From contig NZ_BOLS01000018.1 in NCBI RefSeq assembly GCF_016861785.1, positions 1-53,900 of the forward strand: a DNA stretch of 53,900 nt, given 5' to 3'. Positions 1 to 53,900 of the stretch are shown piece by piece; the first letter of the stretch is position 1; every line of letters starts with the position of its first letter. The position numbers and the translations under genes were made by a program. The DNA comes from Lacticaseibacillus mingshuiensis (lineage in GTDB: Bacteria; Bacillota; Bacilli; Lactobacillales; Lactobacillaceae). The notes beneath the pieces are model-generated. The model ran no database searches and had not been told where the DNA came from. It saw nothing but the letters and a program-made list of their open reading frames with translations.

Positions 1-280
1 TTGCTTGTGGGGCTTGGCGCGATCAGATTTCAACGGCGACAGCGTGATCAAGGCTCGATGCTTACTGCCGGACAACGAGGCTACTGAGGAACCGTAGCGC
101 TGGTAATACTGGTAGAACGATGGATCTGTGAAACACCCACTCGCCTAATTTATGACACCACTGACTCGGATGCCCTTCATAGCAGCCACTCTAGGTTTGC
201 GTACGGTATCCCCCGCACTGGGTCCGCCTGCCTCGGGGGAGATCGTTCCGTGTGGCCACACCAGAAGCCCCTTCTGCTGT
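1..280 (-). ncRNA. Candidate structured RNA of unknown class
   Basis: A leftward promoter at 286-315 predicts a transcript starting near 279, in a stretch with no credible ORF. The RNA can form AGAAG/CTTCT at its 5' end, a GTGTGG/CCACAC palindrome (250-261), and TCCCCCG/CGGGGGA (207-242). GGGGCTT near the 5' end (265-271) is complementary to AAGCCCC near the window edge (9-15), so the two ends of a roughly 265-nt molecule could close on each other. I could not match it to RNase P, tmRNA, SRP RNA or a riboswitch: the RNase P GAGGAAAGTCC core and the SRP GGAAGCAGC loop are absent. A 6S-like RNA or a long leader of a gene beyond the left edge remain possible. Confidence 0.45.
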
Positions 281-285
281 CAATT

Positions 286-315
286 AATATAGCACCCAGA
301 AAACGCTTTTGTCAA
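286..315 (-). promoter_or_regulatory. Promoter of the leftward structured RNA
   Basis: On the minus strand, TTGACA (310-315) and TATATT (286-291) are separated by 18 bp. This is one of the best sigma-A type matches in the window. It points left into the non-coding stretch 1-280, away from telA. The bases between it and the telA terminator (316-431) show no feature I can support. Confidence 0.7.
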
Positions 316-431
316 CTTTATTTGACGACAAGTAAAATGCTTAGAACCGCGTGGAAAAGGCGTTCGTGTCGATGTCTTGTCAGCGTCGGATATATTTATT
401 TTAAATAACTTTCCTGTGGGTCGAAAACTCG

Positions 432-3456: not shown

Positions 3457-4146
3457 ATGAAACTCGGTATTATCTGCGCCATGGAAGAAGAGATCCGCAC
3501 GCTGGTCAACCAGCTGACCGACCGGCAGGAAACGCTGGTGGCCGGTCAGCGCTTTTATTCTGGACGGCTGGCCGGACACGAGGTCGCCCTGGTCGAATCG
3601 GGTATCGGCAAAGTGCAAGCCGCGCTCACCGCAGCCGTGTTGCTGGAAGTGTTCAAACCAGACCTCCTGATCAACACAGGTAGCGCCGGCGGAATCGGCG
3701 AAGGTCTTGCAATCGGCGATGTCGTGATCTCCGAGGCAGTCGCGTACCACGACGTCGACGCCACGGCTTTTGGCTATCTGCCAGGCCAGCTGCCCCAGCA
3801 GCCGCAAAAATTCGAGGCAGATGCTGCAGCCGTTTCGGCGATCGTCGAGGCCGCGCGAGACGTCGCACTGACGACCCATGTTGGCCTGATCGTTTCGGGC
3901 GATCAGTTCATTGCCAGCAAGGACGCCATTGCAAAGATCTTGGCGATCTACCCAGACGCCTTGGCCAGTGAAATGGAAGGCGCCGCGATCGGGCAAGTGG
4001 CGCATCAATTCGGCGTGCCGTTTGTCATCATTCGCGCGATGAGTGATGTCGGCGACGAAAGCGCCTCTGTCAATTTTGACGATTTTATCATCGATGCCGG
4101 CAAGCAAAGCGCCCAAATGCTGCTGGCGTATCTCAAGCAACACTAA
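3457..4146 (+). CDS. mtnN: 5'-methylthioadenosine/S-adenosylhomocysteine nucleosidase
   Basis: A 229-residue nucleosidase (Pfs, MTA/SAH nucleosidase) that removes adenine from S-adenosylhomocysteine and methylthioadenosine. It recycles the products of methylation and polyamine synthesis and feeds the LuxS pathway. Catalytic residues of the family are in place: E12, E172 and E174 in SEMEG, and D197 in MSDVGD, plus the NTGSAGG nucleoside-binding stretch near residue 73. GAAGGA lies about 10 nt before the ATG. It is the last gene of the NUDIX operon. Its TAA stop (4144-4146) coincides exactly with the TAA that begins the palindromic repeat array downstream. Confidence 0.93.
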   Translation: MKLGIICAMEEEIRTLVNQLTDRQETLVAGQRFYSGRLAGHEVALVESGIGKVQAALTAAVLLEVFKPDLLINTGSAGGIGEGLAIGDVVISEAVAYHDVDATAFGYLPGQLPQQPQKFEADAAAVSAIVEAARDVALTTHVGLIVSGDQFIASKDAIAKILAIYPDALASEMEGAAIGQVAHQFGVPFVIIRAMSDVGDESASVNFDDFIIDAGKQSAQMLLAYLKQH

Positions 4147-4267
4147 GGGTGCGGAGCGCGGCGTTTAGGTCTGAGCAGCTAGTTTGGCCCAGACGCTTGG
4201 GGCTGGTCTTAGCCCCGAGTGACGGGGTCAACTAGATGTCTCAGACCTGCCGCGCGGAGCCCAACTG
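4147..4267 (+). repeat. Palindromic element, subtype I (first of a pair)
   Basis: A copy of the ~124-bp palindromic family, starting directly after the mtnN stop. It has the conserved GGGTGCGGAG head and GGAGCCCAAC tail. Paired arms are GCGCGGC/GCCGCGC, AGGTCTGAG/CTCAGACCT and GGGGC/GCCCC around the apical TCTTA. The next copy begins at 4271, a period of 124 bp. Confidence 0.85.
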
Positions 4268-4270
4268 TAA

Positions 4271-4392
4271 GGGTGCAGAGGTGCGCGGGATGGTGGGGCA
4301 GCTAACTTGGCTCGGGTGCTTTGTGGCGCACTTAGCCACCGAGTGCACGAGACATTTAGATGTCCCCACCATGCGCACCGAAGCCCAAATCA
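4271..4392 (+). repeat. Palindromic element, subtype II (second of a pair)
   Basis: The second copy, of the other subtype: arms GGTGCGC/GCGCACC, ATGGTGGGG/CCCCACCAT and an apical GTGGC/GCCAC. It ends three to five bases before the ribosome-binding site of the cysteine desulfurase gene, so its hairpin would sit immediately upstream of that gene's initiation region if read through from mtnN. Confidence 0.85.
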
Positions 4393-4410
4393 ACTAAGGA
4401 AGTGGCATTT

Positions 4411-7308: not shown

Positions 7309-7361
7309 TACTGAATAGTCGGTAGGCTCTTCTACAGCACCATAAACAGAGTGGGATGTGA

Positions 7362-7517
7362 GGGTGGGCTCCGGCTGAAAATGGCTCAGCCCCCTCGTCG
7401 GTGTAAGCGGCTGTGCCGCTTACACCGAAAGTGAGCTTTAAGACCGCGTTCTTTGCGGGCTTAAAGTCACTTGGGAGCGTTCCAGCCAATTTTCGGCCGG
7501 AGCCCACCCGGGCGTTT
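7362..7517 (+). repeat. Second repeat family: inverted-end, multi-hairpin element
   Basis: The element begins GGGTGGGCTCCGG and ends CCGGAGCCCACCC, so the ends are inverted repeats that continue for over 20 bp. Inside are two hairpins: GTGTAAGCGGC/GCCGCTTACAC with a 3-nt loop, and CTTTAAG..CCGC/GCGG..CTTAAAG. A T-run follows at about 7525. A longer relative is at 51357-51570 and a collapsed one at 24140-24186. This copy ends 55 bp before the mnmA -35, so it may act as a terminator for read-through or as a leader element. Confidence 0.8.
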
Positions 7518-7531
7518 ACAGTGTTTTTTAG

Positions 7532-8785
<1,254 letters not shown>

Positions 8786-8845: not shown

Positions 8846-8880
8846 GCGCGGTGGGCGACCTTAACCGCGCCGTTTCACAC

Positions 8881-9003
8881 CGTCAGTCGGGTTACGGTGC
8901 GCATGGTTGAGACAGCTAGGTACGCCTAGCACTCGGGGCTAAGGACGGCCCCAAGCGCCAGGCTAGCCTACCTGCTCGACCATCTCCGCGCACCTTCACA
9001 CCC
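8881..9003 (-). repeat. Palindromic element, single copy, reverse orientation
   Basis: Read on the minus strand, this copy starts GGGTGTGAAG at 9003, four bases after the stop codon of the small membrane protein gene (stop at 9007-9009). Arms: GGTGCGC/GCGCACC, ATGGT.GAG/CTC.ACCAT with one changed pair, and apical GGGGC/GCCCC, so it mixes subtype II outer arms with a subtype I apex. It lies between convergent genes. A CACACC remnant on its left suggests that a neighbouring unit was lost. Confidence 0.8.
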
Positions 9004-9006
9004 TAC

Positions 9007-14660: not shown

Positions 14661-14697
14661 ACGTTCTTTGGAAGTTTGGAGAAAAGAAGGAGTCGTC

Positions 14698-15241
14698 GCA
14701 CTAGCTGCTTGCCCCCTGAACGCTCGGCGCCGCACCCTTACATAGTTGGGCTCCGCCGAGCAGGTCTGAGGCAGCTAACTGGGTCCGGCACTCGGGGCTA
14801 AGGGCGGCCCCAAGCACCAGACCCTGTTAGCTGCTCAGACCTGGACGCCGCGCTTCGCACCCTTACATAGTCGGGCTCCGGTGCGCATGGTGGGGACATC
14901 TAACTGTCTCGTGCACTCGATGGCTAAGAGCGCCATCAAGCACGCGAGCCAAGTTAGCTGCCCCACCATAAGCGCGCACCTCCGCACCCTTACATAGTTG
15001 GGCTCCGCCGAGCAGGGGCGAGGCATCTAGTTGACCCAGTCACTCGGGGCTAAGATCCACCCCAAGCGCCTGGGCCAAACTAGCTGCTCGCCCCTGAACG
15101 CTCGGCTCCGCACCCTTTCATAGTCGGGCTTCGGTGCGCATGGTCGAGACAGCTAGGTACGCCCAGCACTCGATGGCTAAGAGCGCCATCAAGCGCCGGG
15201 CTAGCCTACCTGCTCGACCATATTCGCGCACCTCCGCACCC
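14698..15241 (-). repeat. Tandem array of palindromic elements, 4 copies plus a partial
   Basis: Four complete units start (left edges) at about 14748, 14873, 15000 and 15126, giving periods of 125, 127 and 126 bp. A half unit lies at 14698-14745. Read on the minus strand each unit begins TAAGGGTGCGGAG and ends GGAGCCC(A/G)ACTATG. Units alternate: 15126 is subtype II, 15000 subtype I, 14873 subtype II, 14748 subtype I. Arms change together, for example ATGGTCGAG/CTCGACCAT, CAGGGGCGAG/CTCGCCCCTG, ATGGTGGGG/CCCCACCAT and CAGGTCTGAG/CTCAGACCTG. The array separates convergent genes and abuts the stop codon of the lipid kinase gene. It has no spacers of the CRISPR kind. Confidence 0.9.
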
Positions 15242-16198
15242 TTATTTGTCCATTTCTCTTTTTATCCAGAAGTTTTGTTGGGTGACGGTGAAGTCGAGTT
15301 CAAATGGGCGGCTGCCCATTTCCTCGCCGTCCATTTGGCCAAACTCGAGGCTTGTGGTCTCGAGGTGGATGTGCGGGCTGGCGAAGTGGTGCACGGCTTT
15401 GTACTTGAAGTGCTTGTTGCGCAGCATTTGCACCAGCAAAAAGAAGAAGTAGGGGATGTTCAGCTGCTCAACAACGATCAAGTCGAGCTTGCCGTCATCT
15501 GGGGTGGCGATGGGTAAGATCTTGATGCCGCCGCCAAAATAGGGATGGTTGGTCGTCGTGACGAGAAACGCGCGCTGGATGAGCGTGCGCTGACCATCGA
15601 CAGTAACTGCGACCGGGAATGGTTTCCGTGAGAAAAAGACGCGGACCACGCCGGCCACATAAGAGAGCGAGCCGAGATGCACCCGGTTCAACACGCGCTT
15701 ATAGCGACTGCGGTTCGTGGCCGCGATCACGGAGCCATCAAAGCCAACGCCGATGTTGTTGACGAAAATGCCGCTTTCGTCGCGGGTCGCTTCCGTGTAT
15801 TGCCCAATATCCAGGCGCAGCGGTTTGTCCGCCGCAAGCACTTGGTCCAGCGCCTTCATCGGGTCCTGCGCCATTTTGATACCGCGGGCAAAATCGTTCC
15901 CGGAACCCGCCGGAATATAGGCGACCGGCATGTCTTTTTGCCTTGTCTTCCGCAGTCCGCAGATCGCCTGATTGAGCGTCCCGTCGCCGCCGATGACCAT
16001 CAGCACCGCATTTTCCTGTTTGCCAAAACTCCCGATCTGCCGCGCCAGTTGAACCGCGTGGCCTGCGTACCGCGAAACTTTGATCTCGTATGGAATGTGC
16101 TCATTGTCCAGGCGCGCACGCACCTTTTTGAAAATATTGACGGACATCCCTGAGCTTGCTGCCGGATTGAAAATTATATAGAAAAACGCCGCGCCCAT
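15242..16198 (-). CDS. Diacylglycerol kinase-like lipid kinase (YegS/BmrU family)
   Basis: A 318-residue member of the DAGK catalytic-domain family. The ATP-binding GGDGTLNQ is near residue 77, followed by PAGSGNDFARG, both diagnostic; YFGGGIKILPIATPDDG is the conserved C-terminal metal-site region. It probably phosphorylates diacylglycerol or a similar lipid at the membrane for phospholipid recycling. The start is the ATG at 16198, with AAAGGGG about 8 nt upstream; a further 20 codons in frame are ignored. The TAA stop at 15242-15244 is shared with the first bases of the repeat array, so the array may have supplied the stop. Confidence 0.85.
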   Translation of the reverse strand: MGAAFFYIIFNPAASSGMSVNIFKKVRARLDNEHIPYEIKVSRYAGHAVQLARQIGSFGKQENAVLMVIGGDGTLNQAICGLRKTRQKDMPVAYIPAGSGNDFARGIKMAQDPMKALDQVLAADKPLRLDIGQYTEATRDESGIFVNNIGVGFDGSVIAATNRSRYKRVLNRVHLGSLSYVAGVVRVFFSRKPFPVAVTVDGQRTLIQRAFLVTTTNHPYFGGGIKILPIATPDDGKLDLIVVEQLNIPYFFFLLVQMLRNKHFKYKAVHHFASPHIHLETTSLEFGQMDGEEMGSRPFELDFTVTQQNFWIKREMDK

Positions 16199-24264: not shown

Positions 24265-24284
24265 GTTAGTTGAAATTAAATCCA

Positions 24285-24487
24285 GTGCTTTCCGTTAGGT
24301 GAGGCTCCTATACGAACAATGCGACTGCTCAGAAACATCCAGAGATGCCAATGAGTCAGCAGCGCTTGCCCATAAAGGCTTGTGCTAATGCCGCTGAAGT
24401 TCACTTCTAGGCGTATAGTGCTAAAACTAAACGATTGGGATGCAAGTATCGCGTGCATACTCAATTGGTGTGCGCGTTTTTTTGTTG
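24285..24487 (+). promoter_or_regulatory. M-box (ykoK) magnesium riboswitch with terminator
   Basis: The conserved M-box core is readable: GTTAGGTGAGGCTCCTATAC at 24294, a segment like GCTCAGAAACATCCAGAGATG, and a closing GTATAGTGCTAAAACTAAACG around 24413-24433, which matches the B. subtilis mgtE leader in order and spacing. An intrinsic terminator follows (CGCGTGCAT/GTGTGCGCG plus seven T, to about 24487). In known M-boxes Mg2+ binding compacts the RNA and permits this terminator, so the genes downstream should be expressed when Mg2+ is low. Confidence 0.9.
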
Positions 24488-45050: not shown

Positions 45051-45176
45051 TGCACCCTTTCACCGTGGGGCTCCGGCTCGTATGGCGGGGACATCTAACT
45101 GGCCCGGAGCTGATGGCAAGCGCGTTATCCGCCCAAGCCAAATTAGCTGACCCACCATTCCGCGGCCTCCGCACCC
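45051..45176 (-). repeat. Palindromic element, single diverged copy
   Basis: Read on the minus strand it begins GGGTGCGGAG at 45176. Arms ATGGTGGG/CCC.CCAT and CTAA/TTAG are kept, but the apex (GATAACGCGC..TTGCCATC) is rearranged and the outer arms are mismatched, so this is the most decayed copy. A GCACCC remnant at 45053 marks the edge of a lost neighbouring unit. It sits between the protease terminator and comEA. Confidence 0.75.
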
Positions 45177-45225
45177 TTTTTGCGTAATCTCTTTTATCCA
45201 GACATCAGGGTAAGGGAGTGGCGAG

Positions 45226-50605: not shown

Positions 50606-50611
50606 GGCTCA

Positions 50612-50735
50612 GGGTGCGAAGGTGCGCGCTTATGGTCGTGCAGGTAGGGTAGCCAAGCGCTTGATGGCGCACTCAGCCATCGAGTGCTTGGCGTACCTAG
50701 CTGTCTCGGCCATGCGCACCGGAGCCCCAACTTCA
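50612..50735 (+). repeat. Palindromic element, subtype II (first of a pair)
   Basis: Arms GGTGCGC/GCGCACC, ATGGTCG/CGGCCAT with a wobble, AGGTA/TACCT, GATGGC/GCCATC. It starts seven bases after the rpsO terminator. Confidence 0.83.
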
Positions 50736-50858
50736 GGGTGCGAAGCCGATCGCTTAGGGGTGGCAGGTAGCTCGGCCTGGGCGGTTGATGGCGCACTTGG
50801 CCATCAGGCGACCGGGACGACTACATGTCCCACCCCTGCTCGGCGGAGCCCAACTTGA
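50736..50858 (+). repeat. Palindromic element, subtype I-like (second of a pair)
   Basis: Begins 124 bp after the first. Arms AGGGGTGG/CCACCCCT-like and CCGATC/.CTCGG; the apex is GATGGC/GCCATC, as in subtype II. It ends GGAGCCCAACTTGAC. The remaining 150 bp to the next gene hold nothing I can support. Confidence 0.8.
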
Positions 50859-51356: not shown

Positions 51357-51570
51357 GGGTGGGCTCCGGCCGAAAACGGCTCACTTCGTATGTCTTGGCG
51401 TAAGGCATAAATGCCTAACGCCAAGAGCAAGCCCCCTCGTCGGCGTTGGCGGCTATGCCGCTTACGCCGAAAGCAAGCTTTGAGACCGCGCTTTCCGCGG
51501 GCTCAAAGTTGCTTGTCCGCTCTACTCCGGTCGCCAGCCGATTTTCGGCCGGAGCCCACCCGGGCGTTTA
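51357..51570 (+). repeat. Second repeat family, long copy upstream of rnjB
   Basis: Ends GGGTGGGCTCCGGCCGAAAA and TTTTCGGCCGGAGCCCACCC are inverted repeats of more than 20 bp. Inside are CTTGGCGT.AGGCAT/ATGCCT.ACGCCAAG (absent from the 7362 copy), GGCGTTGGCGGC/GCCGCTTACGCC and CTTTGAG..CGCG/CGCG..CTCAAAG. Compared with 7362, both arms of the last two hairpins have changed together. A T-run follows (51574-51580). It lies about 50 bp before the rnjB promoter. Confidence 0.8.
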
Positions 51571-51618
51571 CTCGTTTTTTTACACAATATCCCACTTTTC
51601 GCAACGCATTTCGGAGTG

Positions 51619-53432: not shown

Positions 53433-53462
53433 GAACGTCAGCGAGTCCCGCTGGCGTTTTTG
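53433..53462 (+). terminator. rnjB terminator
   Basis: ACGTCAGCG/CGCTGGCGT stem (one wobble), short loop, five T. Confidence 0.85.
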
Positions 53463-53531
53463 AATTAGGGCAAGGAAACACGTTCTTTCAAGGACGTGAT
53501 GAATTGCCCTTTTTCTGTGTCCCAGGCCCGC

Positions 53532-53561
53532 TTCACATGGTGCAAGATGACATGTTATAAT
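53532..53561 (+). promoter_or_regulatory. tnpA promoter
   Basis: TTCACA (53532-53537), 18-bp spacer, TATAAT (53556-53561). The start of transcription would fall at or next to the ATG at 53569, giving a leaderless message. Confidence 0.5.
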
Positions 53562-53568
53562 TACTAGT

Positions 53569-53900
53569 ATGAAGGATTCTAAACGTGTGACATATGGTAG
53601 AACCTCTGTCTATAATCTCAATTACCACATCATTTGGGGCACTAAATACCGAAACCGCGTTCTGAAAGGAAACGTCGAAGCCGTGCTTAAGCGAATCCTC
53701 TATGAGGTCGCCGCACAATATGGGTTCAGTATCGACCATATGGAGATTGGTAAGGATGACCACGTTCACTTGTTAGTGAGTGCACCGCCGAAATTGTCGG
53801 TGACTAACATCGTTCGGTGGTTAAAGGGTATTTCGGCTCGTCAAATGTTCGTTGAGTGTCCCGAACTTCAACGAAGCTATTGGAAACACCAAGGGCGGCA
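53569..53900 (+). CDS. tnpA: IS200/IS605 TnpA transposase (Y1 HUH), cut by the window end
   Basis: The first 110 residues of a Y1 transposase that moves single-stranded DNA. YHIIWGTKYRNRVL and the HUH motif DDHVHLLVS (H-V-H) are diagnostic; the catalytic tyrosine, expected near residue 125-130, lies beyond the window. No ribosome site precedes the ATG, and a TATAAT ends 7 nt before it. Codon use and base composition (clearly more AT-rich than the neighbours) indicate acquisition from outside. Whether a tnpB accessory gene follows cannot be seen. Confidence 0.92.
   Translation, partial: MKDSKRVTYGRTSVYNLNYHIIWGTKYRNRVLKGNVEAVLKRILYEVAAQYGFSIDHMEIGKDDHVHLLVSAPPKLSVTNIVRWLKGISARQMFVECPELQRSYWKHQGR

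What the first reader, a model, noticed from the sequence alone, without database searches (positions are those of the whole stretch)
14698..15241. Covarying ~124-bp palindromic element family, amplified in tandem
At least ten near-complete copies plus one partial copy lie at five intergenic sites (4147 x2, 8881, 14698 x4.5, 45051, 50612 x2). Each can form one long hairpin of four or more stacked helices. The helices are kept by matched changes: second arm ATGGTGGGG/CCCCACCAT, ATGGTCGAG/CTCGACCAT, CAGGTCTGAG/CTCAGACCTG, CAGGGGCGAG/CTCGCCCCTG; outer arm GGTGCGC/GCGCACC, CCGAGC/GCTCGG, GCGCGGC/GCCGCGC; apex GATGGC, GGGGC or GTGGC with its complement. Such covariation suggests selection on a folded RNA or single-stranded DNA. 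It encodes no protein, and I know no named family with these sequences. Possibilities are a mobile palindrome moved by a Y1/HUH transposase in trans, a 3'-end stabiliser or terminator, or a structured RNA.
Basis: partly seen in the sequence, partly recalled or inferred. Interest (0 to 1): 0.88.

Follow-up and report, generated by a model that had tools for sequence, protein, structure and literature searches.

The report
Hairpin repeats spread through lactobacilli genomes
Short stretches of DNA that can fold into one long hairpin are scattered in well over a hundred copies between the genes of this lactobacillus, with relatives across its family; matched mutations show that one particular strand is kept able to fold, and their one-sided broken copies hint at an unusual way of spreading for which no enzyme has been found.

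Summary
Ten full ~124-bp copies plus fragments lie at five intergenic sites; the stretches fetched from this genome hold 186 full copies in 101 arrays. A covariance model finds relatives in 94 of 301 Lactobacillaceae genomes (17 of 40 genera), with sequences more alike within a genome (75%) than between (56%). Covariation is very strong (score 0.438 against at most 0.071 for slid partners). Their polarity is unusual: 58 of 101 arrays have a truncated copy on one side and 2 of 101 on the other, and 69 of 74 measured fragments stop before the apex. A Y1/HUH transposase in trans is not supported (missing from the element-richest genomes), nor is a resident reverse transcriptase. Closest known kinds: ERIC, bcr1, REP. 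Best reading: a new, family-wide, MITE-like hairpin element with strand-specific folding, laid down directionally; the enzyme is unknown, and a host RNA function is not excluded.

The parts
4142..4146 (.). left copy of the putative target duplication ACTAA (overlaps the stop codon of the upstream gene)
   Evidence: read; gap is empty in 27 other genomes
4145..4267 (+). full copy; strand given is the better-folding strand E
4269..4391 (+). full copy (strand E)
   Evidence: two units here, one chimeric unit in G027
4393..4397 (.). right copy of the putative target duplication ACTAA
   Evidence: read
8856..8881 (-). weak remnant of a truncated copy
   Evidence: 2.5-3.4 bits; a matching remnant is in G027 (read by eye)
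8884..9005 (-). full copy (strand E)
14697..14739 (-). truncated copy: keeps the E 5' end, lacks the rest
14743..14864 (-). full copy (strand E)
14868..14991 (-). full copy (strand E)
14995..15117 (-). full copy (strand E)
15121..15243 (-). full copy (strand E)
45052..45057 (-). six-base remnant of an element end
45063..45178 (-). full but decayed copy (strand E)
50610..50732 (+). full copy (strand E)
50734..50856 (+). full copy (strand E)

Best explanation
A Lactobacillaceae-wide family of non-autonomous, MITE-like hairpin elements. SHOWN: each unit is about 120-127 bp in the copies aligned and is constrained to fold as a single strand, namely the strand that here begins AGGGTGCGGAG and ends GGAGCCCAACT (strand E). 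Units sit between genes, occupy a site that is empty in relatives, are followed by short spacers that match the flanking sequence, change number in whole units, and are more alike within a genome than between genomes. Truncated copies are polar: most keep the E 5' end, lie at the E 3' side of an array and, in this genome, mostly stop before the apex. INFERRED: insertion starts at a target 3'-end and a polymerase copies a folded single strand of the element from one fixed end, laying down E from 5' to 3'; it completes one or more units or stalls while opening a stem, which leaves the truncated copy. Later slippage between the short target repeats round the palindrome adds or removes whole units. 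Arms stay matched because unmatched hairpins stop propagating, perhaps helped by copying of one arm from the other. The enzyme is unidentified; a resident Y1 transposase or PF00078 reverse transcriptase is missing from several carriers.
For: Strand-specific fold: complement better in 149 of 150 copies, G.U 433 against A.C 72, across 10 genomes 145 against 27. Covariation. Family-wide: 94 of 301 genomes, control 1 weak hit (16.5 bits, E 0.26) in 472 kb of 61 loci from unrelated prokaryotes. Empty site in 27 other genomes. Target-like spacers: shared prefix with the flank 2.01 against 1.31 shuffled, 0 of 2000, also beside fragments. Whole-unit changes between sister genomes and between near-identical plasmids. 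Polarity 58 to 2 of 101 arrays, 17 to 1 in other genomes; 69 of 74 fragments at most 58 nt.
Against: No target repeat just outside the fragments (1.55 against 1.61 shuffled, n 58), and one fragment in G027 matches a copy that is full here, so fragments may be deletion products. In other genomes some fragments pass the apex (75-99 nt) and four at the E 3' side keep the other end. No enzyme found. The lagging-sense orientation bias (32 of 40) rests on one genome; this genome shows only a trend (49 of 83, P 0.07). Clear target duplications round an array with an intact reader-5' end were seen by eye at only a few sites.
Confidence: 0.55

Rival explanations
1. A host-beneficial structured RNA (mRNA processing or stability signal, or small RNA) present in many copies and kept by selection on the E-sense transcript.
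For: The fold is kept on one strand with wobble pairs and conserved loops over 17 genera; two plasmid arrays examined lie between genes of PTS operons; in site 4147 strand E is sense to both neighbouring genes.
Against: Orientation to neighbouring genes is even (99 same, 97 opposite). Sites and copy numbers change between close relatives. No expression data.
Confidence: 0.2
2. REP-like element moved in trans by a Y1 (HUH) transposase of the IS200/IS605 or RAYT kind.
For: Hairpins with mismatches; three Y1 genes in this genome, one IS inserted beside an array; replication-linked orientation in G019.
Against: Y1 in only 13 of 30 genomes and absent from G010, G011, G017, G019 and G007; target-like duplications; no GTAG tag at the hairpin foot.
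Confidence: 0.06
3. SINE-like retroelement: target-primed reverse transcription by an RT in trans.
For: Polar truncation inside the stem, head-to-tail copies, target-like repeats, some sites just after terminators.
Against: No PF00078 RT here nor in G027, G011, G017, G019, G007, G005; found in 11 of 30 genomes, G010 among them. The kept end is the one expected if the less stable strand were the RNA template. No target repeat outside the fragments.
Confidence: 0.06
4. Passive palindromes: arms are kept matched only by template-switch correction and slippage at replication, without selection for folding.
For: Double changes (1193 cells) far outnumber single-sided and unpaired ones in the well-paired columns; whole-unit and chimeric changes are seen.
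Against: Conserved mismatches and side loops are not corrected away and are wobble pairs on one strand only; the architecture is retained at about 56% identity between genomes. Polarity is not explained.
Confidence: 0.1
5. Intrinsic terminators or 3'-end stabilisers.
For: Long stable hairpins between genes.
Against: No common T-tract after either end; separate terminators lie beside some arrays (7 of 99 within 14 nt); even gene orientation.
Confidence: 0.03

Closest known systems
ERIC (enterobacterial repetitive intergenic consensus, 127 bp)
   Different: Found in enterobacteria and Vibrio in that survey; here head-to-tail arrays, polar truncation and strong covariation over a Gram-positive family. 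Sequence similarity to ERIC was not searched directly.
bcr1-bcr3 repeats of the Bacillus cereus group
   Same: Intergenic repeats of a Firmicute described as MITE-like and often part of UTRs or operon gaps (passages of PMC3446304).
   Different: Different bacterial family; I did not compare sequences. Tandem arrays with one-sided fragments are not in the passages I saw.
REP / REPtron (GTAG- and CGTC-tagged palindromes with RAYT transposases)
   Same: Dispersed extragenic palindromes in arrays (abstract and passages of PMC3733652).
   Different: REPs are 20-40 bp with a GTAG or CGTC tag and, for GTAG, a RAYT; here about 124 bp, no such tag seen, Y1 genes do not follow the elements.
Non-LTR/SINE retroelements (recalled)
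   Same: One constant end, truncation at the other, short target repeats, head-to-tail copies.
   Different: No reverse transcriptase in several carriers; no target repeat outside the truncated copies.

Membership tests
Interspersed hairpin repeat / MITE-like element (ERIC, bcr1 kind) | many dispersed intergenic copies without coding capacity | tested here: met
   186 full copies in 101 arrays; finding's no-protein claim agrees with the stems, not tested for every copy
Interspersed hairpin repeat / MITE-like element (ERIC, bcr1 kind) | one long stem-loop, conserved by compensatory change | tested here: met
Interspersed hairpin repeat / MITE-like element (ERIC, bcr1 kind) | occupied and empty sites with target duplication | tested here: met
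   one site empty in 27 genomes, ACTAA at both ends, spacer statistics; clean duplications at few sites only
Interspersed hairpin repeat / MITE-like element (ERIC, bcr1 kind) | an autonomous partner with the same ends | not tested
   no search for paired ends round an ORF was run
REP / RAYT | 20-40 bp palindrome with GTAG or CGTC tag | tested here: not met
   unit about 124 bp, no such tag at the foot
REP / RAYT | Y1 (HUH) transposase in carriers | tested here: not met
   13 of 30 genomes; absent from five element-rich ones
Target-primed retroelement | reverse transcriptase available | tested here: not met
   none here; 11 of 30 genomes; PF00078 only, other RT classes not tested
Target-primed retroelement | truncated copies flanked by target duplications | tested here: not met
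   1.55 against 1.61 shuffled, n 58
Intrinsic terminator | hairpin followed by a T-tract, sense to the upstream gene | tested here: not met
   no common T-tract in the flanks; even orientation
Known Rfam RNA family | match at the gathering score | tested here: not met

The most novel reading that the evidence does not exclude
A bacterial copy-out element without its own or a known helper enzyme: a folded single strand is copied into the target from one fixed end by a host polymerase, giving polar, stem-stalled, head-to-tail insertions, and the element persists across a bacterial family by keeping one strand foldable. This would be a SINE-like life cycle that needs neither a transposase nor a reverse transcriptase of a known class.
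Probability: 0.15. Interest if true: 0.92.

Novelty: new variant of a known kind. Interest (0 to 1): 0.7.

Why it matters
It adds a large, family-wide class of structured repeats in food and probiotic bacteria: in this genome at least 186 units, about 23 kb. The copies are natural data on open points: how palindromes spread without a visible transposase, how paired arms change together, and whether replication shapes repeats. If strand E is transcribed, it is an abundant undescribed RNA structure. Array lengths differ between near-identical plasmids, so they could serve as typing markers.

Tried and rejected
Y1/HUH in trans: rejected on distribution. Resident reverse transcriptase: disfavoured. 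Terminator or sense 3'-UTR role: no orientation bias. Rfam families: none. Phages: no match for the G019-type query or the window query. Plasmids: matches for the G019-type query, none for the window, L392 or L395 queries. Pairing between the outer arms of neighbouring copies: 14 of 53 perfect, against 12% of random pairs and 38 of 53 within the same copy; the fragment test in that call was one base off register and is discarded. Orientation clustering along contigs of this genome was not significant (49 of 83 neighbours concordant, P 0.07). A first spacer extraction failed for many arrays and was replaced. Fragments resemble the following copy only slightly more than random copies (76% against 71%, n 40).

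Rows dropped: A1 used 63 of 67 detected copies (4 incomplete ones left out). A2 holds the best 150 of 320 matches; many of the rest are opposite-strand hits on the same places, some are further weaker copies. Fragment lengths come from the 74 of 99 arrays in which an end was recognised. The 301 genomes were drawn by the tool from a larger group, and at most 11 candidates per genome were scored.

Papers: PMC2267715, PMC3733652, PMC3446304 and PMC3496567 were seen as passages found by word search; the others as search listings only. Searches for earlier descriptions; none listed a description of this family, but most subscription journals are not held.

Full report
WHAT WAS CLAIMED AND WHAT IS THERE. 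I find ten full copies and one clear fragment at the stated places, plus two small remnants. Nine of ten copies fold better than shuffled sequence; the decayed copy at 45063 does not. The window belongs to an unnamed 2.76-Mb genome, G000. Five neighbours of the arrays, by Pfam, are a nucleosidase-type phosphorylase, a tRNA thiouridylase-type gene, a GNAT acetyltransferase, a lipid kinase and an HHH/SLBB (ComEA-like) gene (the last name is recalled).

SIZE OF THE FAMILY. In 96 fetched stretches plus the window I count 186 full copies in 101 arrays: 44 single, 39 double, 9 triple, 8 quadruple, 1 quintuple. A 454-kb sample holds 18 arrays. Model R1 matches 28 of 30 Lacticaseibacillus genomes at E <= 0.001, all but G003 and G021; with the later model R2, G003 has weak matches too (1e-8). 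Reading matches from ten of these genomes shows the same architecture with genome-specific sequence. R2, built from these 46 copies on strand E, matches 94 of 301 Lactobacillaceae genomes in 17 of 40 genera at E <= 1e-6. As a control, 472 kb from 61 loci of unrelated prokaryotes gave one hit at 16.5 bits (E 0.26), against 42-116 bits for the window copies.

COVARIATION. On 149 distinct copies, 90.4% of cells pair; 40 of 46 pairs have a change on both sides; the score is 0.438, against 0.153 shuffled and at most 0.071 with slid partners. Across genomes it is 91.4% and 0.606, against 0.196 and at most 0.121 (the one measure not beyond all shuffles was the number of further pair types, 26 of 500). 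Helices vary independently: each arm shares 1.0-1.9 bits with its own partner and 0.2-0.7 with other arms. These controls do not replace a formal phylogenetic null.

WHICH STRAND. The complement is more stable in 149 of 150 copies (mean -75.9 against -63.3 kcal/mol with RNA parameters; -41.5 against -31.9 and 150 of 150 with DNA parameters) and in 15 of 16 single copies from other genomes. Across genomes strand E has 145 G.T and 27 A.C, 44 of the 145 from one conserved pair, and a consensus energy of -41.9 against -27.9. I therefore take the complement, strand E, as the strand kept foldable. Its consensus carries a GGA/GGA loop near the base, a CTTAG side loop facing GTTGC, and an apical CTTTG loop motif. 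Whether E acts as RNA or single-stranded DNA is not decided.

MOBILITY. The gap between the nucleosidase and cysteine desulfurase genes (site 4147) holds the element here and in G027, while the other 27 orthologous upstream regions printed have none by eye; one of them, G002, has unrelated sequence there, and G009 was not in the print. Here the array is bracketed by ACTAA. Between the sister genomes the sites compared are shared but arrays differ: 2 against 1 chimeric unit at 4147, and 4 full plus a fragment against 1 full plus a shortened copy at 14698; the single copy at 8881 is present in both. Relatives of the G019 type lie on 14 plasmid records, 9 of Pediococcus and 5 of Lacticaseibacillus; two of the four places I examined lie between genes of PTS operons. 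Near-identical plasmids differ by whole units or by hairpin deletions that leave the ends. The spacer after each unit resembles the sequence flanking the array on that side: mean shared prefix 2.01 against 1.31 shuffled, none of 2000 shuffles as high, also for the spacer between fragment and first full copy.

POLARITY. In L. yichunensis loci it is 22 of 39 against 2 of 39, a few of the 22 being 5'-end pieces. In other genomes 17 fragments follow the rule and 1 opposes it, while 4 more at the expected side keep the other end. In this genome fragment lengths are 6-111 nt, 69 of 74 at most 58 nt, the apex being about 62 nt from the kept end; in other genomes several are 75-99 nt. Five of five lone fragments above 10 bits in the sample keep the same end. 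Stalling of a polymerase in a stem would give this pattern, but no target repeat is found just outside the fragments, and at site 14698 in G027 the fragment looks like a shortened version of a copy that is full here, so deletion after insertion is not excluded.

DRIVER. Y1 transposases are in 13 of 30 genomes and missing from G010, G011, G017, G019 and G007, which have 57-146 R1 matches each. Reverse transcriptase (PF00078) is missing here and found in 11 of 30 genomes, G010 included, but not in G027, G011, G017, G019, G007 or G005. In the complete genome G019, 32 of 40 arrays have strand E on the lagging sense (Fisher P 0.00027), replichores being judged from the GC skew of fetched loci; this genome shows only a trend. 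Seven of 99 arrays start within 14 nt after an intrinsic terminator of the E sense, against 0.07 in shuffled flanks. None of this names the enzyme.

VERDICT. Reading the covariation as selection on a folded strand is right in kind but wrong in strand; the Y1/HUH proposal is not supported. I file it as a new variant of interspersed hairpin repeats (ERIC/bcr1 kind) with two unusual traits: strand-specific folding kept over a bacterial family, and fixed-polarity truncation.

Noticed in passing
window 7351-7530 and 51430-51582: A second, unrelated family of multi-hairpin intergenic repeats (two copies 83-90% alike here). Eight places in G027 match it, and at the orthologous place G027 lacks it: its aligned blocks end at 7338 and restart at 7554.
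   Followed up: partly
window 53460-53900; L031: Left part of an IS200/IS605-type element with a Y1 transposase, cut by the contig end; a longer copy of the same kind in L031 lies directly beside an array of the hairpin repeats.
   Followed up: partly
window 24284-24446: M-box (magnesium) riboswitch, 120 bits.
   Followed up: no
L071 (L. jixianensis) 2141-2748: A longer variant with a 176-bp period and an extra internal hairpin that shares the element's termini.
   Followed up: partly
window 1-412: The contig's first 412 bases match several places in G027, so the contig probably begins in another repeat; not identified.
   Followed up: no
E 5' flanks of arrays in L224, L226, L251, L263, L308, L309: Six arrays share the flank TGAATCAAAA (reader orientation) next to what look like different terminators, perhaps a preferred target.
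   Followed up: no
L371 (Lactiplantibacillus plasmid) about 790-820: The seemingly empty plasmid site keeps about 16 bases of the element's end, so it is a deletion scar rather than a never-occupied site.
   Followed up: yes
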